From Asaia bogorensis (GTDB lineage: Bacteria > Pseudomonadota > Alphaproteobacteria > Acetobacterales > Acetobacteraceae), in NCBI GenBank assembly GCA_943333505.2, contig CALQTN020000001.1, positions 1 through 64,000 on the forward strand: a stretch of 64,000 nucleotides of DNA, read 5' to 3'. The position numbers were made by a program, and so were the translations under genes. The notes under the pieces were generated by a model that made no database searches, was not told the DNA's origin, and was given only the letters and a program-made list of their open reading frames with translations. Positions 49,765 to 57,709 of the stretch are shown here, piece after piece (position 1 is the stretch's first letter; each line of letters opens with the position of its first letter).

Positions 49765-52700
49765 GTGCTCATCAAGCAATGGAACGGCCAGACCGGGCTG
49801 TTCAACACCGACGCTGCGTGGTCGCCGACTGGGACTCCCGGGACAGCTGATCTCGCGAGCTTAGGTGGCATCAACGCATACGATGTCAGCACATCCGGCA
49901 CCGCGATTATCGGCGGGTTGGTTATCTCCGGTCCGCGCGCCAATCTGGGCGTTAGCGGCGTGCTGGCCAGCCTTACCAGCATCGACATCGATAGCGGAAC
50001 GGTCGCCGCTGGGACATCCGGCGCATTGCTGGCTGTGACCAGCATCGGTAATGCAGGCGTGATCAGGGTTGCGGCTGGCCACACCCTGACCCTTGGCGCC
50101 GGCACACTGGTCAATAGCGGGACTTTCCTGGTGTCGGGTGGCACCATCACTGTACCGGCAAGCTTTGTGATCGCCGGGGCGTTGCGGGGCCCGATCGGGG
50201 TTAGCAACACCGGAACCATTTCACTCACCAATGGCGGGCTGCTCGATATTTCCGCAAACGCATTGACGTGGGCCGCACTGACCGCCGGCACCATCAGTAT
50301 TGATCGTGCGAGTACGCTCGCGCTTGCGGGTACACTCGGCCTTGGCGGCGCGACGGTAAACTTCCGCCCGGACAGTCTGCTGCACCGGGTGGAATTCCGC
50401 GGCGAGACCCTGAGCAACGGTACGGTTGACGCAGCCGGCGCGGTGTTTGGTGGCAATGAACTCACCTTGAGCCAGGTCAGGTGGAGCGGTTCCTGGACCG
50501 TACCCGCCGGAATGACTGTTTTCGCGGACGCGACAAGCAGCATTGCGGGCGGGACACTCAGCATCTCCGCAGGCGGGCGCCTGCTGGAAACCGGGACCCT
50601 TGATAACCTGACCATTGCGTTGGGCGTGGCGGGTGCGAACGGCACCGCGACACTGGCCGGGACGATCCTGGCAGACGGGCAGAGCTCCGTTGTCGGCCCG
50701 ACCTTGGGCGCGAACATCATTGTGCGGTCAAACGGCAATGCGGTGCTCGGACTGGCGCGCAATTTTGGCACCGTGCTGGTGCAATCCGGCAGTCTTATGC
50801 TGTCTGGCAACGCCAACGGAACTTCGGGTGGTGGGCCCTATTCCCCGGTCACCGCGATCAACCATGGCAGCATCGTCGTCAATGGCGGGGTGCTGCGCCT
50901 CGATTCCTATTCCGACTACCAACCCGGCATTGCTGTCGCCACCGGCCAGATCATCGTCGGCAATGGCGGCGTGGTGGAGGTCGATTTCGTGTCGGCCCAA
51001 ACCAGCACCGGAACACAAGCCAATATCATTTTCGCCGATGGAGCCGGGACATTATCGCTCGCAACCGCCGCCGGCACAGCGCCACCGGCGGTCATAGCAG
51101 TGGGCGGCTTTACCGATGGCGACAGCATCATTGCGGTCAACGGAAGCGTGTCGCAATTCGATGCGGCCAGCCAAACCCTGCTATTCCTTGATCCCGCGAG
51201 CGGCTTGGCCCGCGCCCAGATCACCTTTGCGAGTGGCCACCATTTTGCTGCGGACGAGTTGATCGGCCTCGGGGGAGCGAGCATTGCGACGAGCTTTGTC
51301 GCCGCCGCCAACATCTTGCCGGCTTTCGTGCCGGGAACACGGCAATGGCTTGGGCTGACCGGCAATTTCAACGATGCCAGCCAGTGGACCCCATCGGGGG
51401 TGCCGGGCGCAGGGGAAACTGCCAGCCTGGCGGGCATTGTGGCCTATGTCGCCAGCCAGTCCGGCACCACGACCGTTGTCGCCGCCACGATCAACAATGC
51501 GCTTGCGACCCTGACTGTTGGTGGCACGTTAAGCGCGTCTGCAGGCTTGGCGCTCGAGCATGGCGTGCTGTATTTGCCCGGCACCTTGCGGGACACGATT
51601 GTCACGCAAACGGCTGGCTACTTGCGCGAAGGCAGCGCCGGAACACTTTCCAACGTCACCTGGATTGGGGATCTCACCGCCGCAGCCGGCTTGACCATCC
51701 GCAACGGTATCAGCGTGTTAGGGGCCGATGGCGTCGCCGATGGCCGCCTGACCGTTGCGAGCGGAACCGTTACGATCGCCGATCGTGAAACGCTTGATCA
51801 CGTGACAATTGACCTCGGTGCCACGCTGGTCGCCGCCGCCGGGCTTACGCTCGGCAATCATGCGACGCTTGAGGCGAGCGCTGGCACCACAAGCCTTCTG
51901 GCGACCGGCAGCCTGACAAACGCGGGCCACATCAAGGTGAGAGGCGGCACGCTGACGCTGGGTGGCAGCGGCACCACTGGCTTTAGCAATACCGGCAGCA
52001 TCCGCGTTGCGGCGGGCGCCGAGCTTGATCTGACGGCGGGGAACATCACCCTGGCAGACCTGCTTGCGGGAACTATCGCGATCGACCCCGCGGGCATTCT
52101 GGTCTTGACTGGCACGCTCGATCTCGGTGGCGTCAGTCTGGATTTCCGGGCCGGAAGCCCGCTGAGCAAGGCCGTGCTGCGCGGCGCAACCCTGATGAAC
52201 GGAACGGTCGATGCTGACGCTGGTGAGTTCAGCTTCAGCAGCCTCGCGTTGGGCAACATTGTATGGCGGGGACCGGCCCGCGTTGCAGCCGGTGCCACGC
52301 TGACGGTTGACGGCACCGATAGTTTTCTAGACGCCGTTGGCAGCCTTTTCGGCAGCATCGATGTCAGTGCCGGCGGGGCAGCATTATCGTCCGCGGGCCT
52401 GCTGGATGCCGTCACAATCACGCTCGGGAATGATACCACGCCCGCCGCGATCGTGGGCGCCAATCTGGCGGCGCCGGGCGGGCAGGTCCGACTGACCCCG
52501 CCCAGCCTTGGCCCGGACGCGACGGTGCTGGCGAATGGGCTGGCAGGCTTCGCGGTCTCTCGCAATCAGGGCACGGTAATCGTCCAGTCCGGGACGCTGA
52601 CGCTGACCGGTAATAATGGGATGATCAGCAATGCCGGCCTTTTGCAGACCGCAGGCGGATTGCTGATCGCGGGCGGGCTTACCGACTATCAGGCCGGCAA

Positions 52701-55700
52701 CCCTATCCCGGTCGGGCAGACCCAGATCGGCAATGGCGGCATCTTCAAACTGGTTGATGCCACCGGGCTTGCCCGTAACCATGTCAACGCACGCTTCATC
52801 GACAATAACGGCACGTTTGAGATTGCCACACATCCCGGCACGGGATCTGACACCATCACAATCAACGGCTGGGTTGCCGGGGCAGTGATCATGGCGGATT
52901 TCGCCGACACGTCGCAATTCGATCCGGCGAGTAACAGCCTGCGTTTTTCCAACAGCGCGGCGCCGGGTGAGGTGATCAGCGTCAGCCTGGGGACGGCCCA
53001 TATCTACAGTGCCGATGAACTGACCGGGCTTGGGACCGGCACCATCACCACCGACTTTATCGCCAGCCCGATCACCAATATTTTTCCGCCCGCGACCCAA
53101 TCGGCACCCCAATGGCTCGGCCTCACCGGCAGTTTTGGTGATGCGAATTTATGGACGCCGATCGGCGTTCCCGACGCGACCGCGACCGCAAGCCTGGCTG
53201 GCACGATCGCCTATGTGGTGAGCCAGACCGGCATTCAGACGGTCGGCGGACTGATCCTGAGCAACGGGCAGGCGACGTTATCGGTCGGAGGCATCCTGAC
53301 CACCGCGAGCATCGATCTGCAAGCCGGGACTCTCAATCTGGTTGGCGCGCTGCGCAATGCGAGCATCACCGCAAGGGGCGGCGCGCTGCTCGCGTCGGGC
53401 GGTACACTCGACAGTATTGGCTGGCGCGGCGCGCTGGAGATCATCGGCAGCCTGAGCGCACGCAACGGTCTGGCTTTGGCCGCTGAGGATGGCAGCCTGA
53501 CGGGGCAGTTGAACATTGCCAGCGGCGGTCTCAATTTCGTCGACAGCGAAACGCTCGACAATGCCGCCATCGCATTGGGTGGCGTGCTGTCGGGCAGTGC
53601 GGCGTTGGGGCTGGGGAGCCACACCCATTTGACTGTGCAAGGCCTGGGCACACTGATTGCCACAACGACGCTTGCCACTGCCGGCACGATCACGGTCAGC
53701 GCGGGGCAGACGCTGACGGTCGGGACCCAGGCCGGCTTTAGCTCCGGCACGCTCGTCAACAGCGGCGCTATTGCCGTCGATGGCGGGACCCTGGTGCTGC
53801 TTGGCAGTGTGCGTAACAGCGGCATCATCGCGATCAGCAATGGCGGCGAGGCAGATATTGGCAACACCAGCCTCGCCGCGTTGTTGGCTGCTGGATTAAA
53901 TGTCGATCCAAGCAGCCGGATTGTGATTTCAGGAACTTTTGACCTCGGTGGCGGCACGGTCGATTTCAGCGCCACCGGGCCGCTCGCCGGCGCGGTGTTC
54001 AACGGTGCAACCCTGTTCAACGGGTATGTCGACGCACGACCTGGCGGGTTTAGCGGCAGTGTGGTGGCTCTCAACGGGATCGCATGGCGCGGTCCGCTGA
54101 ACGTCGGCAATGGGCACACACTGACCGTGGACAGTCTTTCGCACGTCGTGGATGCGATTGACCCGACCCTGCCCGGCACCATTGATATCGCGGCCGGTGG
54201 GCAACTGCGCAGCACCGGCACGCTGGATGTCGGCCAGATCAACCTCGGCGACCTCTCCGGTCCAGCAGTGGCAACCCTATGGGGCGGGGTGGCAAGTTTC
54301 GGCGCGTTCCAGGACCCGGTCATCGGCGCCAGTGCCACGATCATCACCGCTGGCGCCGCCAGCCTTTCCTTCGCACGCAATCTCGGCACCATCATCGCTG
54401 CGTCCGGCACCCTCACCCTTACCGGGCGCAACAATGGCGGCAATGATTTCGGCGTGCTGAACGATAACGGCGCGACAATCCTGGCCAGTGCCTACACCAA
54501 CTATGTTGGCGAAAGCGCTATCCCAACCGGGCAGGTGAACATCGCCAATGGCGGGGTGTTCACCGCGATCAATCCGGCGGTTGCCAATCGTTTCGGGATT
54601 GCGGCCGGGGTGCATGCCCGCATCGTGTTCGCCGACGCCACCGGGACGCTGGCCGTGCAGGCGAGTACGATTGAAGATTTCAGCCTGTTCCCATCGATCT
54701 ACTCGGTCCCGTCGATCCTATCCGTGGCAGGGTTCCAGGCTGGCAACGTGATCCGCGTTTCATCTGGCAACGCACGGTTCGACGCCGCCACCAACCAGTT
54801 GGCGTTTTACGACGCAACCACTGCGACCATGACGGCGTTGATCGACTTCGACCCGGGGCATCTGTTCGATCCGTCTGAGCTATCGGGCCTCGGTAGCAGC
54901 AGCATTTCCACCGGCTTTGCCGGCGGTGGAGGCGGCATTACCGCGTGTTTTGCCGCTGGCACACAGATCAGCACCGTTTCCGGGCTGGTATCGGTCGAGA
55001 ATTTGCAGATCGGCGACCGGGTGATGCTGTTCGACGGCCGCAACGCACCGGTTATATGGCTCGGGCATCGCAGTCTTGATTGCGCCCGACACAGGCGCCC
55101 GCACGACGTACAGCCAATCCGGGTGATGCAGCACGCGTTCGGAACCACACCGGACTGCGATCTTTGGCTATCCCCGGATCATGGGATTTTCGTGAACGGC
55201 GTTTTCATCCCGGTGCGTTACCTGGACAATGGCGCAACAATTCATCAGGAGAATTGGGGCCGGGTAACCTACTGGCACATCGAACTCGCGCGCCACGCGG
55301 TTATATTTGCTGCGGGCTTAGCGTGCGAAACCTATCTCGATACTGGCAACCGCCATGCCTTTGTCGAAGGTGGGCCGTCGGTTCAGTTGCATCCTGAGTT
55401 TGCCCGTGCGGTCTGGAGCCGGGAGGGCTGTGCACAACTGGTCACCCAGGGTGCGGAGTTGCAGGCGGTTCGGGCGTTGGTTGCCGCGCGCGCAGCCGGG
55501 CTCGGTTTTACCATGACCGATGACCCGGACTTACATATTTCGATGGACGGCATCCGGCTCAACGGCGTGCAGCTTAATGGGACCTGGAATTTCAACATTC
55601 CGGCCCCACGAACGGTTGCCATTCGATCGCGGCGCGCCCGACCGGTCGATACCGATCCCACCAGCGCTGATGGCCGCAGGCTGGGGGTTGCAATCGCCCA

Positions 55701-55854
55701 TATCGAGTTGAACGGTCGTTCAGTCGCCTTCGGAACCGGGCCTGGCTGGCTAACGGGCGAAGTGGGATGGTGCTGGACCGATGGCGATGCCAGCCTTGCG
55801 ATTACCGAAATTGGCGTCCTTTCGGTGACTATTGCTCTGACGCCGGTTTACTAG
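49765..55854 (+). CDS. Giant three-module repeat protein with C-terminal Hint domain
   Basis: This 2029-residue protein starts at GTG 49765 behind AAAGGG; no ATG is available. Three long Gly/Ala/Thr-rich modules each open with a Trp motif: QWNGQTGLFN at residue 5, QWLGLTGNFNDASQW at 527 and QWLGLTGSFGDANLW at 1116. Each closes with an ELxGLG-S/T-I-xTxF motif. Internal beta-solenoid-like repeats (DLGGVSLDFRAGSPL-type, YQAGNPIPVGQ-type, IGNGGIF-type) recur once per module, suggesting an adhesin-like stalk. Residues 1728-1870 are a Hint_2-type hedgehog/intein domain: CFAAGTQIST, VENLQIGDRVMLFDGR, WLGHRSLDCARH, LWLSPDHGIFVNGVFIPVRY and LDTGNRHAF. About 160 residues follow. No signal peptide is evident. 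A secreted or surface protein with Hint self-processing is likely but unproven. Confidence 0.88.
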   Translation: MLIKQWNGQTGLFNTDAAWSPTGTPGTADLASLGGINAYDVSTSGTAIIGGLVISGPRANLGVSGVLASLTSIDIDSGTVAAGTSGALLAVTSIGNAGVIRVAAGHTLTLGAGTLVNSGTFLVSGGTITVPASFVIAGALRGPIGVSNTGTISLTNGGLLDISANALTWAALTAGTISIDRASTLALAGTLGLGGATVNFRPDSLLHRVEFRGETLSNGTVDAAGAVFGGNELTLSQVRWSGSWTVPAGMTVFADATSSIAGGTLSISAGGRLLETGTLDNLTIALGVAGANGTATLAGTILADGQSSVVGPTLGANIIVRSNGNAVLGLARNFGTVLVQSGSLMLSGNANGTSGGGPYSPVTAINHGSIVVNGGVLRLDSYSDYQPGIAVATGQIIVGNGGVVEVDFVSAQTSTGTQANIIFADGAGTLSLATAAGTAPPAVIAVGGFTDGDSIIAVNGSVSQFDAASQTLLFLDPASGLARAQITFASGHHFAADELIGLGGASIATSFVAAANILPAFVPGTRQWLGLTGNFNDASQWTPSGVPGAGETASLAGIVAYVASQSGTTTVVAATINNALATLTVGGTLSASAGLALEHGVLYLPGTLRDTIVTQTAGYLREGSAGTLSNVTWIGDLTAAAGLTIRNGISVLGADGVADGRLTVASGTVTIADRETLDHVTIDLGATLVAAAGLTLGNHATLEASAGTTSLLATGSLTNAGHIKVRGGTLTLGGSGTTGFSNTGSIRVAAGAELDLTAGNITLADLLAGTIAIDPAGILVLTGTLDLGGVSLDFRAGSPLSKAVLRGATLMNGTVDADAGEFSFSSLALGNIVWRGPARVAAGATLTVDGTDSFLDAVGSLFGSIDVSAGGAALSSAGLLDAVTITLGNDTTPAAIVGANLAAPGGQVRLTPPSLGPDATVLANGLAGFAVSRNQGTVIVQSGTLTLTGNNGMISNAGLLQTAGGLLIAGGLTDYQAGNPIPVGQTQIGNGGIFKLVDATGLARNHVNARFIDNNGTFEIATHPGTGSDTITINGWVAGAVIMADFADTSQFDPASNSLRFSNSAAPGEVISVSLGTAHIYSADELTGLGTGTITTDFIASPITNIFPPATQSAPQWLGLTGSFGDANLWTPIGVPDATATASLAGTIAYVVSQTGIQTVGGLILSNGQATLSVGGILTTASIDLQAGTLNLVGALRNASITARGGALLASGGTLDSIGWRGALEIIGSLSARNGLALAAEDGSLTGQLNIASGGLNFVDSETLDNAAIALGGVLSGSAALGLGSHTHLTVQGLGTLIATTTLATAGTITVSAGQTLTVGTQAGFSSGTLVNSGAIAVDGGTLVLLGSVRNSGIIAISNGGEADIGNTSLAALLAAGLNVDPSSRIVISGTFDLGGGTVDFSATGPLAGAVFNGATLFNGYVDARPGGFSGSVVALNGIAWRGPLNVGNGHTLTVDSLSHVVDAIDPTLPGTIDIAAGGQLRSTGTLDVGQINLGDLSGPAVATLWGGVASFGAFQDPVIGASATIITAGAASLSFARNLGTIIAASGTLTLTGRNNGGNDFGVLNDNGATILASAYTNYVGESAIPTGQVNIANGGVFTAINPAVANRFGIAAGVHARIVFADATGTLAVQASTIEDFSLFPSIYSVPSILSVAGFQAGNVIRVSSGNARFDAATNQLAFYDATTATMTALIDFDPGHLFDPSELSGLGSSSISTGFAGGGGGITACFAAGTQISTVSGLVSVENLQIGDRVMLFDGRNAPVIWLGHRSLDCARHRRPHDVQPIRVMQHAFGTTPDCDLWLSPDHGIFVNGVFIPVRYLDNGATIHQENWGRVTYWHIELARHAVIFAAGLACETYLDTGNRHAFVEGGPSVQLHPEFARAVWSREGCAQLVTQGAELQAVRALVAARAAGLGFTMTDDPDLHISMDGIRLNGVQLNGTWNFNIPAPRTVAIRSRRARPVDTDPTSADGRRLGVAIAHIELNGRSVAFGTGPGWLTGEVGWCWTDGDASLAITEIGVLSVTIALTPVY

Positions 55855-56345: not shown

Positions 56346-56399
56346 TGGAATATTTTTCACCCGGCAATCGTCTGCTTGCTGAACGATGAGAATATTTCG

Positions 56400-56963
56400 A
56401 TGAGTCCCGACCTCCGCAATACGCTGGTTACACTGCTGCCACGGATGCGACGGTTCGGTCTCGCGCTTACCGGATCGGCAGCCGATGCCGATGATCTGGT
56501 GCAACTCACGTGCGAGCGGGTGATTTTGCGGTCGGCGCAACTACGCGAACACGCAAGACTGGATGCCTGGCTGTATGGGATCATGCGCAATCTTTGGATC
56601 GATGAACTACGCTACCGCAAGCGGCGGCAGCATGACGATCTCGACACGGCAACCGGCGTGATCGGCGATGATGGGCAGGCGGTTGTCGACGGCCGCATCA
56701 CCCTTGCCGCGGTCCGACTGGCCATGCAGGACATGCCTGCTGATCAGCGCATCCTGCTGATGCTGGTCTGTGTTGACGGGTTGACCTACCGTGAGGCGTC
56801 GGAAACCCTCGGTATCCCGTTGGGCACGGTCATGAGCCGGCTATCGCGGGCAAGACAGGATTTGCATCAGCGTATGAACCCGGCGCCAAAGCCAGACGGC
56901 GTCGCCCAATTCCCACTGCGCGGCGGGGCTGGCCGCGACAAACGACCGGGCGAGACCCGTTAG
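56400..56963 (+). CDS. ECF-family RNA polymerase sigma factor
   Basis: This 187-residue protein runs from the ATG at 56400 (MSPDLRNTLVTLLPRMRRFG); a TTG at 56376 would add eight residues. Region 2 is LTGSAADADDLVQLTCERVI with RLDAWLYGIMRNLWIDELRY RKRR. Region 4 is MPADQRILLMLVCVDGLTYR and EASETLGIPLGTVMSRLSRA. It lacks sigma regions 1 and 3, so it is an ECF factor. The anti-sigma gene starts 2 bases after its stop. Its regulon is not visible; the nearby giant surface-type protein is an attractive target. Confidence 0.9.
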   Translation: MSPDLRNTLVTLLPRMRRFGLALTGSAADADDLVQLTCERVILRSAQLREHARLDAWLYGIMRNLWIDELRYRKRRQHDDLDTATGVIGDDGQAVVDGRITLAAVRLAMQDMPADQRILLMLVCVDGLTYREASETLGIPLGTVMSRLSRARQDLHQRMNPAPKPDGVAQFPLRGGAGRDKRPGETR

Positions 56964-56965
56964 AC

Positions 56966-57709
56966 ATGACTGACAAGCAAACCATGGAAAACCTTCTCGT
57001 CGGCTATGCCGATGGCGAACTCGACGCCGCAACCACGGCCGAGGTCGAGGCTTATATTGCCGCCAATCCGGACGCCGAACGGATGCTGGCCCTCCACCGC
57101 GAAACCACCGCCTTGTTGCGGGCGGCTTTCGCGGAGGGCCTGTACGCCAAGGGCCCGACCACTGTGGCGCCCGCGATACGTCCGCGCCGACCTGCGATGC
57201 GGCGCTGGATGGCGATGGCGGCCGCGCTGATGCTAGCAGTGCTGGGGTATGGCACCGGAGCGACCTGGCCAGACCTTGTAGTGTCCGGGCGATCGCGGAT
57301 GTTGAGCGAAGTTGCCGAGTACCATGCGGTTTATTCGCGAGAAACAGTACATCTGGTGGAAGTGCCAGCAGCCCAGATCGATCACCTCAAGGCCTGGCTT
57401 GGCCGGCGGGTGAAGGGCACGCTGCTCGTCCCCGATTTCAGCGCGGCCGGGTTGACCTTTGCCGGCGGGCGGATGGTCGTGGTCGATGGCGCGCCGGTGG
57501 CGGAGTTGATGTACACCCGCGCCAACGGCCTGCCCATCGGGTTCTGTATGTTCTGGCATGACGCGACTCCCAGCCCGATTCTGGTCGAACGGCGGGAAAA
57601 ACAGCATCTGGCGACATGGGATGATGGCAAGCACGGCTACATCGTCGTGGGCGAAGCCGATCGTGACCTGATCCACCGGTTAGCCACAGCCGCCAAGCAG
57701 CAGATCTAG
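56966..57709 (+). CDS. Membrane-anchored anti-sigma factor
   Basis: This 247-residue protein has an N-terminal sigma-binding region (MENLLVGYADGELDAATTAE then VEAYIAANPDAERMLALHRE). One transmembrane helix (about residues 80-97, MRRWMAMAAALMLAVLGYG) is followed by a periplasmic domain (YHAVYSRETVHLVEVPAAQ, LMYTRANGLPIGFCMFWHD) resembling anti-sigma factors of the RsiW/FecR-like class in alphaproteobacteria. The zinc-binding HxxxCxxC motif is absent. It should hold the ECF sigma factor at the membrane. Its TAG stop is the first triplet of a conserved repeat unit. Confidence 0.82.
   Translation: MTDKQTMENLLVGYADGELDAATTAEVEAYIAANPDAERMLALHRETTALLRAAFAEGLYAKGPTTVAPAIRPRRPAMRRWMAMAAALMLAVLGYGTGATWPDLVVSGRSRMLSEVAEYHAVYSRETVHLVEVPAAQIDHLKAWLGRRVKGTLLVPDFSAAGLTFAGGRMVVVDGAPVAELMYTRANGLPIGFCMFWHDATPSPILVERREKQHLATWDDGKHGYIVVGEADRDLIHRLATAAKQQI

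What the first reader, a model, noticed from the sequence alone, without database searches (positions are those of the whole stretch)
49765..55854. 2029-residue three-module protein with a terminal Hint domain
Each ~520-600-residue module starts with a QW-G-TG-F-W motif and ends with an ELxGLG motif, and internal motifs recur once per module, so the stalk arose by large tandem duplication. The Hint domain keeps the first Cys and the SPDH and TGNR motifs of self-processing proteins. There is no recognisable secretion signal. A self-cleaving or surface-anchoring adhesin is plausible, and its mechanism is essentially undescribed.
Basis: partly seen in the sequence, partly recalled or inferred. 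Interest (0 to 1): 0.6.

Follow-up and report, generated by a model that had tools for sequence, protein, structure and literature searches.

The report
Three-unit bacterial surface stalk, self-cleaving tail
This gene encodes a long, rod-like protein that is probably displayed outside a vinegar-bacterium relative, and its tail carries a domain built like those that cut proteins by themselves; many related bacteria put the same tail on very different outer-surface proteins, often beside sugar-attaching enzymes, and its job has apparently never been tested.

Summary
The 2029-aa ORF (49765-55854, +) has three tandem modules (residues 5-526, 527-1115, 1116-1727; 40-42% identical) and a C-terminal Pfam Hint_2 domain (1728-1860, E=1.5e-39). 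AlphaFold2 gives the intein/Hedgehog (HINT) fold with high confidence and a parallel beta-helix for a module. Cys1728 and SPDH are conserved, but the intein C-terminal His-Asn is replaced by Glu-[Ser/Thr] in essentially the whole family, so cleavage or transfer at A1727|C1728 is possible and splicing is not expected. 'TGNR' lies just beyond the catalytic core. The gene is one of 11 Hint_2 genes in this Acetobacteraceae genome, orthologous and syntenic across the genus, under purifying selection. Family-wide, Hint_2 ends passengers without Sec signal or beta-barrel (AIDA-like stalks, PATR, RTX-GH113-CBM60). Some sit directly behind autotransporter heptosyltransferase genes; in three genera a stalk, Hint_2 and a glycosyltransferase form one polypeptide. 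Most likely: an exported beta-helical adhesin whose Hint_2 domain self-cleaves its N-terminal junction. Secretion route and acceptor unknown; Hedgehog-like transfer to a glycan is the untested novel reading. Known family, new variant; no wet-lab evidence.

The parts
49765..55854 (+). Whole gene, 2029 aa, GTG start, TAG stop
   Evidence: orthologs at 83, 82 (split over two contigs), 67 and 47% identity in the four other genomes of the genus; dN/dS 0.09-0.22
49777..51342 (+). Module 1 (residues 5-526), beta-helix stalk unit
51343..53109 (+). Module 2 (residues 527-1115), beta-helix stalk unit
53110..54945 (+). Module 3 (residues 1116-1727), beta-helix stalk unit; AlphaFold2 all-beta, pLDDT 77.9; best structural neighbours Awp1, pertactin, Ag43
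54946..55344 (+). Hint_2 domain (residues 1728-1860)
   Evidence: Pfam; fold
54946..54948 (+). Cys1728, putative N-to-S acyl-shift nucleophile (Cys1)
   Evidence: Cys in every one of 94 aligned Hint rows with a residue in this column; 9 rows lack it, roughly half of them truncated or partial, the rest real losses
55171..55182 (+). S1803-P-D-H1806, block B (intein TxxH position)
   Evidence: S/T 101 of 103, H 97 of 103
55327..55332 (+). E1855-T1856, aligned with the intein penultimate His and terminal Asn; E[ST] replaces HN
   Evidence: ends of the structural alignments; E 98 of 103, S/T 100 of 103
55345..55515 (+). Linker with predicted helices between Hint and the C-terminal domain
55516..55851 (+). 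Conserved C-terminal beta domain (residues 1918-2029; S....P, DxRxLG, WTxG), not in Pfam and not matched in PDB by sequence
55852..55854 (+). TAG stop at a codon where orthologs have Trp and continue for about 14-24 residues
56376..56963 (+). Neighbour: ECF sigma factor; order conserved across the genus
56966..57709 (+). Neighbour: putative anti-sigma factor (weak zf-HC2 match)

Best explanation
The protein is an exported, non-enzymatic beta-helical adhesin or surface stalk built of three duplicated solenoid units. Its C-terminal Hint_2 domain makes an intein-type N-to-S acyl shift at Cys1728, converting the A1727-C1728 bond into a thioester that is then broken, so the 1727-residue stalk is separated from the Hint plus C-terminal domain. 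Because the intein His-Asn pair is replaced by Glu-Thr, C-terminal cleavage and splicing are not expected. Export is Sec-independent, most likely through a type I system encoded elsewhere. Shown: modular duplication, HINT fold (by prediction), conserved Cys1 and SPxH, loss of HN, absence of a Sec-like start, conserved C-terminal domain, purifying selection. Inferred: surface location, cleavage, type I route, adhesion.
For: Beta-helix fold with adhesin/autotransporter-passenger neighbours (Awp1 Z 15.9, pertactin Z 14.5, Ag43 Z 14.4). HINT fold for residues 1727-1861 (Z 13.2, 2.4 A over 119 residues to a BIL domain). Cys1, SPxH and block F residues conserved over 103 divergent Hint domains. Extracellular-type passengers in paralogs: AIDA/O_hepto_targRPT, PATR, T5SS/PEP-CTERM repeat, RTX+GH113+CBM60, Ig-like. 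Relatives encoded 6 and 37 bp behind BAHT heptosyltransferase genes. All BAHT-positive genomes have at least 4 Hint_2 genes (p=1e-5), and 7 of 21 BAHT loci have a Hint_2 within 12 kb (1.65 expected, p=5e-4). Hint_2 separating a stalk from a glycosyltransferase in three genera is easiest to explain by cleavage.
Against: No experiment. No RTX repeat in this protein and no type I system linked to the gene; HlyD is in 58 of 60 genomes whether or not Hint_2 is present, so co-occurrence is uninformative. Only about 5 of 100 Hint_2 proteins carry clear RTX repeats. A few relatives have lost Cys1 yet persist, so parts of the family may not be catalytic. The window copy lacks the last 14-24 residues of its orthologs. 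Association statistics do not correct for relatedness of the genomes.
Confidence: 0.55

Rival explanations
1. Hedgehog-like transfer: Hint_2 makes the thioester and the downstream domain presents a hydroxyl of a cell-surface glycan (or lipid), so the stalk becomes covalently ester-linked to the envelope, replacing the missing beta-barrel anchor.
For: Hint plus downstream domain parallels Hint plus SRR/ARR of Hog proteins (PMC2362128); the C-terminal domain also occurs in a polysaccharide pyruvyl transferase and in GT4 glycosyltransferases; stalk-Hint_2-GT4 single polypeptides in three genera; Hint_2 genes beside sugar-nucleotide or glycosyltransferase genes on two plasmids; splicing residues HN lost.
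Against: No acceptor or glycan binding shown; the C-terminal domain has no fold assigned; many Hint_2 proteins end shortly after Hint without it; the stalk-Hint-GT fusions carry a different intervening module; by sequence alignment the Hedgehog general-base Asp is not conserved (own alignment, from memory of the Hedgehog sequence).
Confidence: 0.15
2. The Hint_2 plus C-terminal domain is mainly a structural export or folding module (for example the type I secretion signal or an anchor) and its catalytic residues are kept for fold stability, with little or no cleavage.
For: Hint_2 starts near the C-terminus of nearly all family members regardless of passenger (median 325 residues from the end); Cys-less degenerate copies persist.
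Against: Near-universal Cys1, SPxH and block F residues in a family diverged to about 30% identity argue for chemistry; in the glycosyltransferase fusions the module is internal.
Confidence: 0.2
3. The neighbouring heptosyltransferase or fused glycosyltransferase modifies the stalk before Hint cleavage, so Hint_2 is a timer that frees a glycosylated passenger from cytoplasmic machinery.
For: BAHT genes directly upstream of Hint_2 stalk genes; stalk-Hint_2-GT4 fusions.
Against: The window protein has no strand-loop-strand repeat match, no fused glycosyltransferase and no BAHT neighbour; in its genome BAHT is seen only as two partial hits at contig ends.
Confidence: 0.08
4. A true intein or A-type bacterial intein-like domain that splices or excises itself.
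For: Same fold; conserved Cys1 and SPxH.
Against: His-Asn replaced by Glu-[Ser/Thr]; the residue after is Tyr/Phe, not Cys/Ser/Thr.
Confidence: 0.02

Closest known systems
Pfam Hint_2 (PF13403) proteins of Alphaproteobacteria
   Same: Direct family member, 136 bits against a cut-off of 28.4; same Cys1, SPxH, block F and E[ST] residues; Hint_2 near the C-terminus
   Different: Unusually long triple-solenoid passenger; carries the extra C-terminal beta domain that many shorter Hint_2 proteins lack
B-type bacterial intein-like (BIL) domains
   Same: As described in the review PMC7765530: intein motifs kept except the C-terminal one, N-terminal cleavage, found in variable bacterial proteins
   Different: No reference B-type sequence was compared here, so identity of the two groups is not shown
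Hedgehog C-terminal Hog domain (Hint plus SRR/ARR)
   Same: HINT fold (1at0, Z 11.2, 2.7 A, 115 residues), C-terminal position, no terminal His-Asn, extra domain behind Hint
   Different: The extra domain here is a beta domain of unknown fold; no sterol or other acceptor known
AIDA-I/Ag43/TibA type autotransporters with BAHT heptosyltransferases (PMC4358343)
   Same: Beta-helical passengers; relatives of the window protein carry the same strand-loop-strand repeats and sit next to BAHT genes
   Different: No Sec signal and no C-terminal beta-barrel; Hint_2 stands at the C-terminal end instead; the window protein itself has no such repeat match
RTX type I secretion substrates
   Same: No N-terminal signal; one paralog in the same genome joins GH113, RTX repeats and CBM60 to Hint_2 plus the C-terminal domain
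   Different: The window protein has no RTX repeats and no linked type I system

Membership tests
HINT superfamily / Pfam Hint_2 | Profile match above the curated cut-off | tested here: met
   136.1 bits vs 28.4
HINT superfamily / Pfam Hint_2 | HINT fold | tested here: met
   AlphaFold2 pLDDT 90.8; top structural matches are BIL domains, inteins and Hedgehog, Z 11-13
Intein (class 1) | Cys/Ser at position 1 and block B TxxH-type motif | tested here: met
   Cys1728 and S1803..H1806
Intein (class 1) | C-terminal His-Asn followed by Cys/Ser/Thr | tested here: not met
   Aligned residues are Glu1855-Thr1856 then Tyr1857; Glu in 98 and Ser/Thr in 100 of 103 family members
A-type BIL domain | C-terminal His-Asn | tested here: not met
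   definition from PMC7765530
B-type BIL domain | Intein motifs present except the C-terminal motif | tested here: inconclusive
   Pattern fits but no reference B-type sequence was compared
B-type BIL domain | N-terminal autocleavage | not testable with these tools
   needs expression
Hedgehog Hog domain | Hint followed by an SRR/ARR acceptor-binding region | tested here: inconclusive
   A conserved domain follows Hint but its fold and ligand are unknown
Type Va autotransporter | Beta-helical passenger | tested here: met
Type Va autotransporter | N-terminal Sec signal | tested here: not met
   (hydropathy test, not SignalP)
Type Va autotransporter | C-terminal beta-barrel translocator | tested here: not met
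   No barrel family in the Pfam scan; the C-terminus is Hint_2 plus a small beta domain
Type I (RTX) secretion substrate | RTX nonapeptide repeats | tested here: not met
   No PF00353 match in the protein; present in paralog L020
Type I (RTX) secretion substrate | Export by an ABC-HlyD-TolC system | not testable with these tools
   A HlyB/HlyD pair exists on another contig (C82)
Two-partner secretion (TpsA) | N-terminal TPS domain and Sec signal | tested here: not met
   No TPS/haemagglutination-activity family at E up to 1, no signal

The most novel reading that the evidence does not exclude
Hint_2 plus its downstream domain is a bacterial counterpart of the Hedgehog autoprocessing domain that hands exported stalks to a surface glycan, giving ester-linked protein-polysaccharide conjugates: a covalent anchoring system that takes the place of the autotransporter beta-barrel in acetic acid bacteria and relatives.
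Probability: 0.13. Interest if true: 0.9.

Novelty: new variant of a known kind. Interest (0 to 1): 0.5.

Why it matters
Hint_2 proteins occur in 47 of 60 sampled Acetobacteraceae genera, up to 22 per genome, and in other Alphaproteobacteria, yet no functional study was found. If the tail self-processes, it is a widespread way for Gram-negative bacteria to finish or anchor Sec-less beta-helical surface proteins, with a modified HINT active site (E[ST] for HN). The operons with autotransporter heptosyltransferases and the stalk-Hint-glycosyltransferase fusions give concrete, testable links between protein self-processing and surface glycans. The single protein in the window is one representative of that larger pattern.

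Tried and rejected
(1) Splicing intein or A-type BIL: rejected because HN is replaced. (2) Classical autotransporter or TPS protein: no signal, barrel or TPS domain. (4) Type I link by co-occurrence: HlyD in 58 of 60 genomes, uninformative; two Hint_2-HlyD proximities (G055, G060) were looked at and are not operonic. (5) C-terminal domain identity: no Pfam family, no PDB sequence match beyond noise; the structure search list was filled by the Hint domain, so its fold is not assigned. (6) A search of viral contigs with the window Hint sequence alone found nothing; the paralog profile did. (8) Literature on PF13403 by name returned mostly unrelated HINT2 papers; a Hint-domain mutation of unknown effect is noted in a cellulose-overproducing strain (PMC11999647), and PF13403 is listed among families enriched in fast-growing marine bacteria (PMC12487129).
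Full report
WHAT IS THERE. The open reading frame at 49765-55854 (+) is a real gene: 2029 aa, GTG start, same start and same three-module layout in orthologs from the other genomes of the genus (83, 82, 67 and 47% identity), dN/dS 0.09-0.22 in every domain. It lies between rplK (divergent) and an ECF sigma/anti-sigma pair, an order conserved in the relatives examined. Named relatives are uncultured Acetobacteraceae. In the window copy the stop TAG stands where orthologs have Trp, so the last 14-24 residues of the orthologs are missing.

MODULES. Three units of 522, 589 and 612 residues are 40-42% identical; alignment scores of 240-374 bits compare with at most 64 for shuffled sequence. Window module 3 is 85% identical to module 3 of the ortholog L059 but about 41% to its other modules, so the duplications are older than the split of these species. 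AlphaFold2 on a 13-row alignment gives an all-beta solenoid (pLDDT 77.9, pTM 0.69). Foldseek hits are weak (best E 0.006) but nearly all beta-helices, and the structural realignment gives Z 15.9 (Awp1 adhesin), 14.5 (pertactin), 14.4 (Ag43).

HINT DOMAIN. Pfam Hint_2 at 1728-1860. The AlphaFold2 model of residues 1727-2029 has pLDDT 90.8, pTM 0.76. Its first 130-135 residues superpose on a BIL domain (6y75, Z 13.2, 2.4 A, 119 residues), another BIL (2lwy, Z 13.0), inteins (Z 12-13) and Hedgehog (1at0, Z 11.2, 2.7 A), with Cys1728 at intein position 1. The ends of these alignments put the intein terminal Asn at Thr1856 and the penultimate His at Glu1855. Over 103 distinct Hint domains collected here, Cys1 is Cys in all 94 rows with a residue in that column (the other 9 are truncated rows or real losses), block B His is kept in 97, Glu at the HN position in 98, Ser/Thr next in 100. 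So the N-terminal half reaction is chemically plausible, and splicing is not expected. TGNR is just behind the core and its Asn is only moderately conserved (67 of 103).

SECOND C-TERMINAL DOMAIN. Residues 1918-2029 form a conserved beta domain (invariant S, P, D.R.LG, W..G) absent from Pfam and unmatched in PDB sequences. It also occurs without Hint, for example fused to a polysaccharide pyruvyl transferase, and behind a degenerate Cys-shifted Hint in GT4 glycosyltransferases. In the window's own genome one such glycosyltransferase gene starts some 37 bp after an active passenger-Hint_2 gene.

FAMILY CONTEXT. The genome has 11 Hint_2 genes; the family occurs in 47 of 60 sampled Acetobacteraceae genera, up to 22 copies, and on plasmids of Sinorhizobium, Rhizobium, Paracoccus, Acetobacter, Cupriavidus and others. 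Passengers vary completely: Ig-like plus PATR, T5SS/PEP-CTERM repeat, AIDA/strand-loop-strand, GH113 plus RTX plus CBM60. Of 87 proteins with a closed 5' end, only 3 show even a moderately hydrophobic segment in the first 60 residues and none looks like a Sec signal (hydropathy only). BAHT heptosyltransferases (TIGR04414), which glycosylate AIDA/TibA-type autotransporters (PMC4358343), are in 15 of 60 genomes, all with at least four Hint_2 genes (Mann-Whitney p=1e-5); 7 of 21 BAHT loci have a Hint_2 domain within 12 kb against 1.65 expected (p=5e-4), not corrected for relatedness. In two of these the BAHT and the Hint_2 stalk gene are 37 and 6 bp apart, with the stalk carrying matching repeats; an annotated Neokomagataea plasmid shows the same neighbourhood. 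In three genera one polypeptide holds a stalk (AIDA-family match in two), an active-looking Hint_2 and a GT4.

MECHANISM. Best supported: export of a beta-helical stalk without Sec signal, then (or before) Hint-catalysed thioester formation at A1727-C1728 and release of the stalk from its tail. Estimated separately (inference): exported surface or secreted stalk 0.85; Cys1728-dependent cleavage 0.7; type I export 0.5; transfer to a glycan rather than water 0.15. The stalk-Hint-glycosyltransferase fusions are the strongest argument for real cleavage, as an extracellular stalk and a nucleotide-sugar enzyme would otherwise share one fate; they do not show where cleavage occurs. The type I route rests on elimination plus the RTX-bearing Hint_2 proteins; co-occurrence was uninformative.

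COMPARISON. It is a Hint_2 protein by profile and fold. It is not an intein or A-type BIL (HN test failed). It fits the published description of B-type BIL domains (PMC7765530), untested against reference sequences. It works like the first half of Hedgehog processing, but no acceptor is known. It resembles autotransporter passengers in fold but lacks the signal and the barrel.

VERDICT. Observation confirmed; interpretation partly supported. A member of a catalogued but, as far as the searches show, functionally unstudied family, with a notable family-level pattern. Interest 0.5.

Noticed in passing
window 55852-55854: TAG stop in the window gene where orthologs have Trp followed by 14-24 more residues; homology continues past the stop. 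Real truncation or assembly error not distinguished.
   Followed up: partly
L166:3053-6505, L167:68-3112 (-), L168:434-3727 (-): Stalk - active-looking Hint_2 - intervening modules - GT4 glycosyltransferase in one polypeptide, in three genera.
   Followed up: partly
L163:41-4424, L164:776-7384: BAHT heptosyltransferase gene directly followed (37 and 6 bp) by a Hint_2 protein with strand-loop-strand repeats.
   Followed up: yes
L014:8168-12290 and L161: Passenger-Hint_2 gene followed by a gene for degenerate Hint_2 + C-terminal domain + GT4; catalytic Cys shifted and block B His lost.
   Followed up: partly
L079 and L083, about 3 kb upstream of the active Hint_2 gene: Tandem Cys-less Hint_2 paralogs next to active ones.
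   Followed up: no
window 56376-57709: ECF sigma factor and putative anti-sigma factor directly downstream, order conserved across the genus; possible regulation of the stalk gene untested.
   Followed up: partly
L012:5658-14009: 2784-aa paralog with 13 GloVer 'choice-of-anchor' tandem repeats and Ig-like domains before Hint_2.
   Followed up: no
L152, L156, L157, L158: The C-terminal beta domain fused to an uncharacterised domain (FENLGSNCDF...); no Pfam match at E 0.01 for the two scanned, L152 and L156.
   Followed up: no
L127:2799-8402 (-) and similar loci L128, L129: Conserved Acetobacteraceae type I secretion cluster: HlyB-like ABC, HlyD and a repeat-containing protein of about 590 aa; candidate exporter for Sec-less Hint_2 proteins.
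   Followed up: partly
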